Assembly: GCF_048128805.1 (NCBI RefSeq)
Contig: NC_136010.1
Location: 20,983,480-21,047,479 of the forward strand
Direction: 5' to 3'
DNA: 64,000 bases
Source of the DNA: Centroberyx gerrardi
Lineage: Eukaryota > Chordata > Actinopteri > Beryciformes > Berycidae
Made by a program: the position numbers and the translations under genes. Below, piece after piece: positions 13,501 through 20,662 of the stretch. Position 1 is the first letter of the stretch. Each line of letters opens with the position of its first letter. Under the pieces are notes generated by a model. That model did not search any database and was not told where the DNA came from. It saw nothing but the letters and a program-made list of their open reading frames with translations.

Positions 13501-16500
13501 TGGTGGAACTCTGTGATTTGCATGACATTAGGAGCAGCTTCTCTCGTTTCCCAGGGGATAACACCCTTGTGATTTCAGGCTCCCACAGCTATTGATACCA
13601 TGTCACCATACAAAGCCATAGTGTATCATACATTTGCAGAGCTTCCTGTTTTTTTTATTAGAGGAGGATACAGTATTTTTTTTTCCTTGGGTAGACCTCC
13701 ATCTGTTGCCATATAGCCACAGCAAAGTCGCATTCTTTTACTTTTACCGTTGAATCCTTTCACGACAGAACATACAACACAGAATGGAACATGTAGTCGA
13801 CTGTATTCACGCTTTTCTCTTTACACACTTTATGTTCTGTTACAGGAGTCTGGGAGTTCACTGTTCTAAGGTGCGCTCTCTGACACTGGACTCATGGGAA
13901 CCAGAGTTACTAAAGGTTTGTCAGCAGTGTCCTGCCAAATAATGATAGTCACTAATGCCTTGCAAGTACAATCCTGAGTCAATCTTAGTGAGGAGACGCC
14001 TAATGTAAAGTCTCTTGTCTGTATTGCTTTGTAGTTAATGTGTGAGCTTGGAAACAGCGTCATCAACCACATCTATGAAGGCTCATACCAAGAACAGGGT
14101 CTGAAGAAACCATTACCGTCCAGTTCAAGGTAGGAATCGATAAAAAAAACAAGTAAAATATATAGAAACAATCCCGGGTATTGATTCAATCATTTACTAT
14201 CTCCCATGGTCCCTTGCAGGCAGGAAAAGGAGGCCTGGATTAAGGCAAAGTACGTAGAGAAGAAATTCCTGAAGAAGCTGGGCTCCACAGAGATACTCAT
14301 CAACGGCGAGAGGAAGTCGGAGAGGCGGTGGAGTGTGAAGAAGTGCCGGAGACACAACAGCGCCACCACGGTACCCAAGACGCGGCGGAGATACCGACAA
14401 GAGCCTGGAAGCGCCTCGCCCGCCACTCTCTCCTCAGGTACCTGAACTGATCTCTGTCCTGACTTGTATCTATGCAGAAGGGAGCTGACAGTCGTTCATC
14501 TGATTTTCTCACTCTCTCTACTTGTCGTTGTGCTGTACGTTTGTCTCACAGCAGCTGCTAAGTTCCGGCGAGACTCCCTGTTTTGCCCAGATGAGCTGGA
14601 CTCTCTCTTCTCCTACTTTGATACAGGATCTGGGCCCCGAAGTAAGTGACTCACTATTCTGACACTCCGTCCCACAAAATGGCATCTCGTTCCCTGTTGT
14701 TTACACCCATCCAGACCAAGTTACACACACATATCCCCATCCAGACTGTAGTTACCCACCTAGATAAAAGACACATACCGTTTGAATAAGACCCATGAAT
14801 CTTGTATGTGTTTGTATACAAGTGTCTGCATTTGTTTGCATGAGTGTGTGGCTTTAAACAACACTGGTCAGCCGGAGACAGCGGTAACTAATGTGTCCAT
14901 GTACTGGCGTCTCCCGGTCCGGCAGGTTTGAGCAGTGACAGCGGGTTGGGAGGCAGCACAGACGGCAGCACGGACATCCTGGTGTTTGGCTCAGTGGTGG
15001 ACAGTGTCACAGAGGAGGGTGAGTCCAATGCAGATAGTCCCTTGGGTTACTTGGTGATGTATTATGTAGTGAGCACTCTATAGATACGTTATACATGACA
15101 AATTTGACATAATGTTCAGTACACATACAATGTCTAGATTGACCCTGTGTGGCTGTAAGTAATCCGCCTCCCTGGCCTCTCCTCAGAGTGCGAGGTGTCA
15201 GAGGACTCGAGCGGCGAGGCGGAGCTGGAGGCCGAGCCGGAGACGTCGGACGCTGAGGACGTGAGGGAGCTTCACCCCGGAGCGCTGCTCTACAAGGCCT
15301 CCAAGGCCCGCAACCTGCCTGTCATGGCCGAGGCACTAGCCCACGGGGCCGACGTCAACCTGATCAACGACGAGGATGAAGGCAAGACGCCCCTCATACA
15401 GGCGGTGATCGGGGTGAGTCGTCGACTGACTTAGTCACACCGGAAGCATCAGACAAGTGCCACTAAAGTAATGCTTTTGTAATGAAAAAAAATGCAGTAT
15501 GCCTTCCATGAAGTACCTCATGTATGTACATAGTGTATTAATTAGGGATGCAGCGATTGATCGGCCACCGATCATAAATAGCCAATCCAACTGCCAGATC
15601 AGGACAGTTTCAATTGCCAGATCAGGAAAGCGGACGAACATATGCCGTGAAAAGTATGAACCAATTTGCAGCAGTCAAGCTTCCCATATCAAGAGCTTGC
15701 TAACCGGTGTTGTTACTTTATTCCAGGGTTCACTGATAGCCTGCGAGTTCCTGCTCCAGAATGCTGCTGACGTCAACCAAAGAGACGCAAGAGGGAGGGG
15801 CCCCCTGCACCATGCTACCTATCTGGGACACACAGGGTAAGTCATGAGACACAATATTGCTCTTTGCATGTTTACTCTTTTCCATCGCATTGTGCTGCTA
15901 CTGTGCCTCTGTGATTGCCACCATGAAGTAATCCTAGTCAGCGGTGTAGCACTTGTAACCACTTCCCACACAGTTCAATAAAACTTGCTTTATTGAAGTG
16001 ACTCCGTATGCCCTGCACAATATGTGTAGCTCCTCTGCAAATCACAGTGATTTGATTTTTCTCGCTTTGTGTCACAGTGAGCTATTAATACGGAGCGCAG
16101 GTCTTTGAAAGTGGGAATCTGATTCACTGTGAGTGTGCTGTGACTGATGCCCATTTCCCTGCTGTTCTGTGGTCTTTCCAGGCAGGTGTGTTTATTCCTC
16201 AAACGGGGAGCTACGCAGAACGACGGGGACGAGGATGGCCAGGACCCTTTGAGTATAGCTGTACAGCAAGCCAACGCAGATATAGTCACACTGTATGTTT
16301 ATTTGCTTTCCATAGATCCATTTTTTTTATAAAGGTTTTAATTTTCTAGTTTCGATGGATTTATTTAACATTTTCTCTCCTCCTCCTTTCCTTCTTTCCC
16401 TTCAGGCTGCGACTGGCCAGGATGAATGAGGAGATGCGGGAGTCGGAGGGACCGTTCGGCCAGCCAGGTCAATACCCCACCAGCAGCCCCACTGAGCAGC

Positions 16501-16553
16501 AGTATAAGAAATGCATACAGGAGTTCATCTGTCTCAACATAGCCGAGTGCTAG
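1509..16553 (+). CDS. acap3: ACAP3, Arf GTPase-activating protein with BAR, PH, ArfGAP and ankyrin domains (5' partial)
   Basis: GTPase-activating protein for Arf small GTPases (Arf6 in the ACAP family), acting at endosomal and plasma membranes. Coding exons: 1509-1567, 2001-2184, 3656-3700, 3901-3996, 4563-4637, 5796-5807, 10348-10460, 10983-11034, 11501-11601, 11961-12072, 12372-12580, 13846-13915, 14035-14129, 14220-14437, 14552-14641, 14926-15018, 15187-15413, 15727-15836, 16182-16292, 16406-16553. All junction phases agree and give 739 residues. Adding about 92 missing N-terminal residues matches the human length of about 834. Fragment residues 1-157 are the rest of the BAR domain (FDQAQRSVKQQLHNFVKE). 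The PH domain starts at VVMEGYLFKRASNAF. The ArfGAP zinc finger has CxxC...CIEC and the SGIHRSLGVHC arginine-finger region. Ankyrin repeats lie in the last five exons (DVNLINDEDEGKTPL, DVNQRDARGRGPLHH). The end CIQEFICLNIAEC is ACAP3-type, which separates it from ACAP1 and ACAP2. Whether it is the a or b teleost copy cannot be told. Confidence 0.96.
2342..2711. mobile_element. MITE-like element with long terminal inverted repeats, in an ACAP3 intron
   Basis: The left end (GGTGCCAAAAATGG, then GAGTGATGCCA) matches the reverse complement of the right end (GGAACCCGAAAATGG, then GAGTGATGCCA) over roughly 50 bases. The interior has repeated AAGAACC motifs and a near-perfect palindrome at about 2588-2641 (AATATCCCAAAGAAC around TATATAT). 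No transposase frame is present. A clear target duplication was not identified, so the superfamily is left open. Confidence 0.8.
5796..5807 (+). CDS. acap3: ACAP3 12-nt microexon (TLMQ)
   Basis: A four-codon exon flanked by ctctcAG and GTgagt encodes TLMQ. It joins in phase 0 between the exon ending ATIQQR (4637) and the exon starting DFSYDD (10348). Human ACAP3 reads QQRTLLQDFSYD at this position, so the four residues are expected. It links the BAR and PH domains and is too short for ORF-based detection. A 1.2-kb intron precedes it and a 4.5-kb intron follows it. Confidence 0.88.
10948..10982 (+). repeat. (CT)n tract forming the polypyrimidine tract of an ACAP3 acceptor
   Basis: CT/CCCT repeats run straight into the AG at 10981-10982 that precedes exon 10983-11034, so the microsatellite itself serves as the splice-acceptor pyrimidine tract. 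Confidence 0.85.
15543..15640 (+). mobile_element. hAT-type element fragment in an ACAP3 intron
   Basis: It begins TAGGGATGCAGCGATTGATC and continues with GGCCACCGATC, typical of one end of widespread vertebrate hAT non-autonomous elements. The matching right terminus was not found, so this is probably a truncated copy. It also repeats the motif TTGCCAGATCAGGA-like twice internally. Confidence 0.55.
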
Positions 16554-20095: not shown

Positions 20096-20555
20096 GTGAA
20101 AGACTGGAATGTTCATTCCCCTTTTTAATTAGTTAAGCCTGGGCGATCTCAAGGGACACAAAAGAGTTCAACTGCCTTTGTTATGTCCATAGATTCAGCC
20201 GTTTCCATGGCCACGAGAAAAGTAAAGCCACAGAATTTGGAAAGTAGAAAGAGGGAAGCGTCATGGTGCCTTTAAGTCTGTTTTTGCCCTTCCATTCATG
20301 GGGCGGTTTTACCCAGGGAGCCTCTGCTTTCTCTTTTCCTGGTTGCTTGAACTCATAACAGCTTTCATATGAAAGATGTTTTGACTTGTTGGTAGTTTCA
20401 AAAACTTTGTGCCAAGCTTCTACTGCTTATACTACCCAGGATTACAAAGCTGTTTGTATTCCCTTCCAGAGCTACTATGCAATGCAAGTCTTGACTGAAA
20501 TGTTCAGTGACGTTGTCCATCATTTTCATACTTCCCCCATCGTTTTGTTCAGCAG

Positions 20556-20662
20556 GAGACGCAACGTACCTTGACATCTTCCGAGAGTTTTCCCACATGG
20601 CCTCCCACAACCCAGAGAAGCTGAAGCGCAGGAGCGTGCACTTCCGACACTCCTTCAGGTAG
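20556..20662 (+). CDS. acap3: ACAP3 alternative last exon encoding an ACAP2-like C-terminus
   Basis: If the donor inside exon 16406-16553 is used (CAG|gtcaat, exon end 16467), the message joins in phase 1 to this exon and reads ...GQPG then DATYLDIFREFSHMASHNP, followed by EKLKRRSVHFRHSFR and TAG at 20660-20662. ACAP2 proteins end in the closely similar GQPG-DETYQDIFRDFSQMASNNPEKL..., so this is an ancestral ACAP-family last exon, about 4.1 kb past the first stop codon. The acceptor is a tandem CAGCAG (exon start 20553 or 20556), and both starts keep the frame. Skipping the donor gives the ACAP3-type tail ending at 16553. The exon structure is seen in the sequence; actual use is inferred from conservation. 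Confidence 0.82.

What the first reader, a model, noticed from the sequence alone, without database searches (positions are those of the whole stretch)
16406..20662. ACAP3 keeps two complete C-terminal ends, one ACAP3-type and one ACAP2-type
Exon 16406-16553 reads through to an ACAP3-type tail (CIQEFICLNIAEC). A donor inside it at 16467/16468 joins, exactly in phase, to an exon 4.1 kb downstream whose tail (DIFREFSHMASHNPEKL) closely matches the end of ACAP2. This suggests that the ACAP3 tail arose by reading through an ancestral donor, and that this lineage still has the ancestral last exon with its own stop and poly(A) signal. The two ends would differ at the membrane- or partner-binding C-terminus.
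Basis: partly seen in the sequence, partly recalled or inferred. Interest (0 to 1): 0.75.

Follow-up and report, generated by a model that had tools for sequence, protein, structure and literature searches.

The report
Two conserved ends of one ACAP3
This fish ACAP3 gene can end its protein in two different conserved ways, depending on whether one weak splice site is used; neither end is peculiar to this fish, and the end thought to belong to ACAP3 alone is also present in the same fish's ACAP2 gene.

Summary
In the window's ACAP3 gene, exon 16406-16553 reads through to a stop, and an internal donor (16467/16468) joins in phase to a second last exon at 20556-20662. Both ends are conserved: the 120 listed best hits (of 544) to the distal tail match it 100% over 44 residues, the named species being teleosts; 113 of 120 listed proteins (of 334) end with the read-through tail, in fishes and frogs. 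Transcript-sized contigs carry each end. Both are already database isoforms; I saw no paper describing them.

The interpretation needs correcting. The distal tail is the common ACAP1/2/3 tail, and annotated ACAP3 has it from sharks to marsupials, so its survival here is ordinary. No named placental mammal was in that list. The read-through tail is not ACAP3's own: this genome's ACAP2 (C9) has it at the same weak donor, and the distal exon too, with fewer amino-acid changes than chance. Best reading: an old composite terminal exon, older than the ACAP2/ACAP3 split, whose ends are being lost unequally (distal exon fast-diverging in acap3b). Function of either tail is untested.

The parts
1509..16292 (+). 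18 upstream coding exons of ACAP3 (end of BAR, PH, ArfGAP, ankyrin repeats); the N-terminal ~93 residues were not found in the window
   Evidence: tblastn with a recalled human ACAP3 probe, boundaries set by hand; Pfam BAR_3 and ArfGap above cut-off, PH and Ank below it, exon by exon
16406..16467 (+). exon part common to both ends (LRLARMNEEMRESEGPFGQP plus 1 nt)
16468..16473 (+). weak internal donor CAG|GTCAAT, identical in own-genome acap3b and ACAP2
   Evidence: (PWM 0.81)
16468..16553 (+). read-through coding end GQYPTSSPTEQQYKKCIQEFICLNIAEC* (stop 16551-16553)
   Evidence: conserved in fishes and frogs; pN 0.07, pS 0.37 against acap3b
17053..19685 (+). six candidate poly(A) hexamers (17053, 17611, 18605, 18792, 19663, 19680) for the read-through mRNA; use not shown
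20551..20555 (+). end of the intron, tandem acceptor TTCAG|CAG| (NAGNAG; exon start 20553 or 20556)
20556..20662 (+). distal last coding exon, family tail GDATYLDIFREFSHMASHNPEKLKRRSVHFRHSFR*, stop 20660-20662
   Evidence: 100% over 44 aa in the 120 listed best hits of 544
21826..21831 (+). first AATAAA after the distal stop (candidate poly(A) signal)

Best explanation
The 3' end of ACAP3 is a composite terminal exon. The donor at 16467/16468 lies inside coding sequence. If U1 snRNP and the spliceosome use it, 4.1 kb are removed and the protein ends with the tail common to ACAP1/2/3. If it is not used, and the transcript is cleaved at a site in the intron, translation runs 28 codons on and stops, giving the CIQEFI tail. 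Shown: both frames, sites and stops; conservation of both ends; each end on transcript-sized contigs; both ends annotated for what is by its length the same contig in several species; the same arrangement in this genome's ACAP2. Inferred: that splicing versus intronic polyadenylation is the switch, that the choice is regulated, and that the arrangement was present in the ACAP2/ACAP3 ancestor, after which copies and lineages lost or loosened one end or the other (distal end fast-diverging in acap3b; not seen in placental ACAP3).
For: (phase, sites); 120 of 120 listed (of 544) 100% identical over 44 aa; 118 of 120 end exactly as here; 113 of 120 listed (of 334) end with the read-through tail, in teleosts, bichir, sturgeon and frogs. 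Of 38 contigs over 100 kb, 10 have the same length as a contig carrying a distal-tail protein or 32 (counted by hand; names partly cut off: Chaetodon, Chelmon, Sparus, Cottoperca, Sebastes, Xenopus tropicalis, X. laevis, Bufo, Polypterus, and Mixophyes, where the read-through copy is a tandem model). Contigs of 2.7-3.3 kb encoding 816-868 aa, too short for the unspliced gene, carry distal (P0050, P0119, P0343; extended in P0306, P0307) or read-through (P0205) ends. Own genome: ACAP2 with both ends; the read-through tail has fewer amino-acid changes than random substitution in 3 of 3 paralog pairs, P 0.007-0.010. Donor codons GGT and CAA stand in 3 of 3 genes although they are minority codons in this ACAP3 (3 of 37 Gly, 8 of 38 Gln).
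Against: No RNA reads from this species were available. Most isoform records are computed gene models, and short contigs could in principle be retrocopies. Five of 120 models (P0158, P0159, P0209, P0214, P0216) join read-through segment and distal exon in tandem, which the simple either/or scheme does not predict, and two (P0202, P0232) have other ends. Poly(A) hexamers are only candidates. The three paralogs are related, so codon retention is not three independent facts. The upstream 20 codons give similar pN and pS (P 0.002, 0.064, 0.059), so the read-through tail is constrained like coding DNA, not specially. The distal codons of acap3a against ACAP2 are not significantly constrained (P 0.13), and acap3a against acap3b still is (P 0.011), so 'decay' of the acap3b exon is not proven; its frame is open.
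Confidence: 0.82

Rival explanations
1. The read-through tail arose in ACAP3 alone; the copy in ACAP2 (C9) came later by gene conversion or a chance in-frame extension.
For: Human ACAP2 as I recall it ends only with the distal tail, and the listing of a paper search on ACAP2 splice variants showed no such form in titles or abstract starts (10 of 12 papers listed). Only one ACAP2 gene was examined.
Against: Chance is unlikely: 28 codons with the same start and stop position, pN 0.18 against pS 0.63; so many synonymous differences speak against recent conversion. C9 fits ACAP2 better in 11 of 14 exons, ties in 1 and fits ACAP3 better in 2, the tail exon and an ACAP3-like RRDSLFCPDELDSLFSYFD exon 5.2 kb upstream, so two separate modules would have had to be transferred. 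Tree support for C9 with ACAP2 is moderate, 84/88.
Confidence: 0.12
2. The distal exon is a relic kept by annotation pipelines and not used in ACAP3.
For: It diverges fast in acap3b (8 changes unique to acap3b against 0 to acap3a, ACAP1 as outgroup, P 0.008) and no named placental was seen with it.
Against: 100% identity over 44 aa in all 120 listed hits, while the body of the same proteins has median identity 95.4% to the window (109 of 120 with more than 600 aligned columns); transcript-sized contigs with this end.
Confidence: 0.03
3. The read-through end is intron-retention noise that yields no stable protein in fish.
For: The donor is weak; regulated removal of another Acap3 intron (intron 19) is reported in mouse cells (PMC11616996, passages seen).
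Against: Protein-level conservation in fishes and frogs, fewer amino-acid changes than chance in three paralog pairs, and in human ACAP3 it is, as recalled, the only end.
Confidence: 0.05

Closest known systems
Composite terminal exons / intronic polyadenylation (e.g. CstF-77 intron 3, PMC3708835; immune-cell atlas PMC5928244; TRAP150, PMC4227790; only the search listing with starts of abstracts seen)
   Same: A weak donor inside a longer terminal exon, poly(A) hexamers in the following intron, the choice decides the C-terminus
   Different: Here both ends are short, conserved, complete C-termini rather than a truncation; poly(A) use is not shown
Isoform partition between duplicates (SKI7/HBS1 in fungi, PMC3597508; only the listing with the start of the abstract seen)
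   Same: One old alternatively spliced gene making two products; the comparison with copies that keep different products is partly recalled
   Different: Partition here is partial: fish acap3a and ACAP2 have both ends, acap3b's distal end is diverging; the human state is recalled only
ACAP1, ACAP2 (PDB 3jue, 4f1p, 3t9k, 6if3)
   Same: The distal tail aligns with both
   Different: The read-through tail itself matched none of these chains; own-genome ACAP1 read-through shares only a 7-residue stretch (P 0.005 and 0.03), inconclusive
Database ACAP3 isoforms of fishes and frogs
   Same: Both ends already listed as predicted isoforms
   Different: In the listings and passages I saw, no paper describes the two ends or their presence in ACAP2 (searches; one search listed 40 of 96 papers)

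Membership tests
ACAP3 (ArfGAP with coiled coil, ankyrin, PH) | BAR, PH, ArfGAP and ankyrin domains in order | tested here: met
   Pfam along 3-16 kb, exon by exon: BAR_3 and ArfGap above cut-off, PH and Ank below it; exons in order by tblastn with a recalled human probe
ACAP3 (ArfGAP with coiled coil, ankyrin, PH) | Groups with ACAP3, not ACAP1/2 | tested here: met
   Tree of the ankyrin region: C14 and C5 within the ACAP3 rows, 82/87, moderate support; body 97.9% identical to an annotated Polymixia ACAP3
ACAP2 (gene on C9) | Closer to ACAP2 than to ACAP3 along the gene | tested here: met
   tblastn: ACAP2 ahead in 11 of 14 exons, tie in 1, ACAP3 ahead in 2; sums 802 and 761 bits; tree 84/88. 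Human probes recalled
Composite terminal exon | Alternative use of an internal donor in the last coding exon | tested here: met
   Both ends annotated on contigs of identical length in 10 of 38 cases, one of them a tandem model; annotation, not reads
Composite terminal exon | Polyadenylation within the intron for the read-through form | not testable with these tools
   Only hexamers seen
Isoform partition between duplicates | Duplicates keep complementary ends | tested here: inconclusive
   acap3b distal exon diverging but open and not proven free of constraint; placental loss inferred from absence in one capped list; human ends recalled

The most novel reading that the evidence does not exclude
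The ancestor of ACAP2 and ACAP3 already made two C-termini from one composite terminal exon. Jawed vertebrates outside placentals still have both in ACAP3, at least this teleost has both in ACAP2 as well, and placental mammals have split the two ends between the genes (ACAP2 the common tail, ACAP3 the CIQEFI tail), so that a splicing choice became a gene choice. ACAP2 may still hide an unannotated CIQEFI-type end in other vertebrates.
Probability: 0.5. Interest if true: 0.6.

Novelty: new member of a known kind. Interest (0 to 1): 0.45.

Why it matters
ACAP2 and ACAP3 both act on Arf6, and ACAP2 is recruited by Rab35 through its ankyrin region (review PMC6358971, passages seen). If fishes and frogs make both tails while placentals use one tail per gene, work on the mammalian proteins sees only part of what the family does, and knock-outs of acap2 or acap3 in zebrafish must be read with two ends in mind. 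It also gives a test of how alternative ends are divided between duplicates, because acap3b may be losing one now.

Tried and rejected
Structure: AlphaFold models of a distal-tail protein (P0005) and a read-through protein (P0125) had mean pLDDT 42.2 and 42.5 with both tails under or near 50, so no fold claim is made for the tails; only the ankyrin part is well covered by matches to solved chains, ACAP1/2 among them. The 6if3 alignment reaches chain residue 764, which, if the chain's last residue is 770, means that the distal-tail helix of ACAP2 is ordered in the Rab35 complex; this rests on recalled numbering and a poor model.

Amphipathic membrane helix: hydrophobic moments did not stand out for the read-through tail (fraction of shuffles as high: 0.23 window, 0.34 frog) and only weakly for the distal tail (0.06 window, 0.015 shark).

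C-terminal extensions seen in sturgeon, chimaera and bichir models were sought in the window; nothing significant (best E 0.29, 0.43 and 0.13).

ACAP1 read-through homology: a 7-residue match, inconclusive. Mouse Acap3 intron 19 is, as far as the passages show, a different event. Passages of other papers naming ACAP3 say nothing on the two ends; one reports significant ACAP3 splicing differences in frontal-lobe samples without details in the passages.

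Full report
What is there. The window lies on contig C14 of a 779-Mb genome; its first 21 kb hold ACAP3 on the + strand. I assembled 18 exons plus two alternative last parts. The distal acceptor is a tandem NAGNAG. The donor CAG|GTCAAT ranks within the top 7% of all 3851 GT sites of the window by a crude PWM, but is the second weakest of the 19 donors of this gene.

Is the distal exon real? A search of 5.8 billion proteins with the spliced tail gave 544 hits; the 120 listed all match 100% over 44 residues. The species named are teleosts, from carps to cod to perches; many records are called ACAP3, others only Arf-GAP of this kind or hypothetical. 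118 of the 120 end exactly as here; two run on by four residues. The bodies of the same proteins have median identity 95.4% to the window (109 with more than 600 aligned columns; range 65.7-97.9%), so the tail is at least as constrained as the rest.

Is the read-through end real? The same kind of search with the read-through tail gave 334 hits, 120 listed; 113 of 120 end with it, 5 have the read-through segment followed by the distal tail, 2 have other ends. Species range from bichir and sturgeon to teleosts and frogs. Of 38 contigs over 100 kb in this list, 10 have the same length as a contig that carries a distal-tail protein of the same genus or 32 (counted by hand; names partly cut off; in Mixophyes the read-through copy is a tandem model). 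Each list shows only its best 120, so 10 is a lower bound. Contigs of 2.7-3.3 kb that encode 816-868 residues of this many-exon gene cannot be the unspliced gene; they carry the distal end (P0050, P0119, P0343; extended in P0306, P0307) or the read-through end (P0205), and P0357 (609 aa, distal) is a shorter example. The tool does not say what data they come from; transcripts are likeliest, retrocopies not excluded.

Is this lineage special? No. With a query made of a recalled human ACAP3 body and a frog distal tail, the 120 best of 3923 hits all carry the distal tail (118 new proteins checked; two were tandem models seen before). Named groups are frogs, salamanders, caecilians, turtles, crocodilians, birds, lizards, snakes, tuatara, coelacanth, sturgeons, paddlefish, bichirs, teleosts, chimaera, sharks and marsupials (bilby, possum, wallaby, wombat). 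The query selects for this tail, so the list shows who has it, not how many lack it. No named placental is among the 120, although a placental ACAP3 with this tail should have scored highest; four names are cut to one letter or none, four rows are unnamed, and clustering at 90% could hide members. Placental loss is therefore likely, not proven. Marsupial tails differ from the others in their last dozen residues.

The surprise. Searching the own genome with the read-through tail gave, besides the window, C5 (85%) and C9 (72%) with tails of the same 28 codons and a TAG at the same position. C5 is the second ACAP3. C9 is ACAP2: along PH, ArfGAP and ankyrin exons a human ACAP2 probe is ahead of the fish ACAP3 probe in 11 of 14 exons (e.g. 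97 against 83%, 89 against 82%, 84 against 70%), level in one and behind in two, and in a tree of the ankyrin part C9 joins human ACAP2 with moderate support (84/88) while C23 joins ACAP1 (100/99). The C9 gene has the same donor, ten bases identical (CAGGTCAATA), the read-through tail GQYPTNSPTEMQYRKCMQEFISLQLDET*, and 4.5 kb on the distal exon GDETYQDIFQDFTQMASNDPDKLNRY*. So the 'ACAP3-type' tail is shared by ACAP2 and ACAP3. One of the two exons where ACAP3 is ahead is this tail exon; the other is an ACAP3-like exon RRDSLFCPDELDSLFSYFD, which human ACAP2, as recalled, lacks. C23 (ACAP1) and the C6 gene have the distal exon; their read-through frames are not clearly related.

Selection. Pairwise counts over the 28 read-through codons: acap3a-acap3b pN 0.07, pS 0.37 (P 0.007); acap3a-acap2 0.18, 0.63 (P 0.009); acap3b-acap2 0.19, 0.67 (P 0.010), P from random substitution of the same number of bases. 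The upstream 20 codons: 0.09, 0.63 (P 0.002); 0.11, 0.38 (0.064); 0.16, 0.49 (0.059). Over 25 distal codons: acap3a-acap1 0.09, 0.70 (0.0005); acap2-acap1 0.14, 0.55 (0.013); acap3a-acap3b 0.25, 0.68 (0.011); acap3a-acap2 0.22, 0.51 (0.13); acap3b-acap1 0.36, 0.78 (0.08); acap3b-acap2 0.45, 0.86 (0.15) (all). With ACAP1 as outgroup, 8 of 26 distal residues changed in acap3b alone and none in acap3a alone (two-sided P 0.008). So the acap3b distal exon diverges fast, but its frame is open and loss of function is not proven. The donor codons GGT and CAA are minority codons in this gene (3 of 37 Gly, 8 of 38 Gln) yet stand in all three copies, even in acap3b; CAG would have given a donor closer to consensus. 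This hints that a weak donor is kept, but the copies are related.

How it most likely works. Use of the weak donor gives the common ACAP tail; failure to use it, with cleavage at one of the hexamers in the next 3.1 kb, gives the CIQEFI tail. The same layout in three genes fits a composite terminal exon. The regulators and the tails' functions are unknown; fold predictions were too poor to help. ACAP2's ankyrin region is solved with Rab35 (6if3), and the chain's sequence runs into the distal tail, so one testable idea is that the swap changes binding next to the ankyrin repeats.

Verdict. Both ends are database isoforms already, and in the listings and passages seen from the open-access library I found no description (one search listed 40 of 96 papers; no supplementary files or preprints searched). 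The presence of both ends in ACAP2, hence probably an origin before the ACAP2/ACAP3 split with later uneven loss, is the part that seems new.

Noticed in passing
P0158, P0159 (Hemibagrus), P0209, P0214, P0216 (frogs); Models with read-through segment and distal tail in tandem (..EC|DTTYLDIF..). If the junction splits the Cys codon after its first base, as the frames suggest, the same junction in the window would give TGA. Gene-model artefact or real third isoform is open.
   Followed up: partly
L016/L011 region of C9, position 20506-20616 of the joined stretch: This genome's ACAP2 carries an exon RRDSLFCPDELDSLFSYFD that I otherwise know (recalled) from ACAP3; its splice sites were not settled.
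   Followed up: partly
P0306, P0307, P0311, P0316, P0328 (sturgeon, paddlefish and unnamed contigs): The distal tail is extended by RGRELASLDLLLLEMS(S/P)QPVNEN(N/D)VN, as if the end of the distal exon were itself a donor; in the window the stop is formed inside an AG|GTAG that resembles such a donor. No matching exon was found in the window.
   Followed up: partly
window 14548-14555: A second tandem acceptor (CAGCAG) before exon 14552; several fish isoform pairs differ by one residue in length, which would fit.
   Followed up: no
window 11034-11040: GC donor (AAG|GCAAGT) in the PH-domain part of ACAP3.
   Followed up: no
window 24078-25950: Next gene downstream on the + strand, with protein kinase domain matches; the sequence looks like a HIPK kinase (recalled, not tested).
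   Followed up: no
P0217, Polypterus: A model with metallo-beta-lactamase/beta-CASP-type Pfam domains before ACAP3, probably two neighbouring genes merged (INTS11-like; domain names recalled).
   Followed up: no
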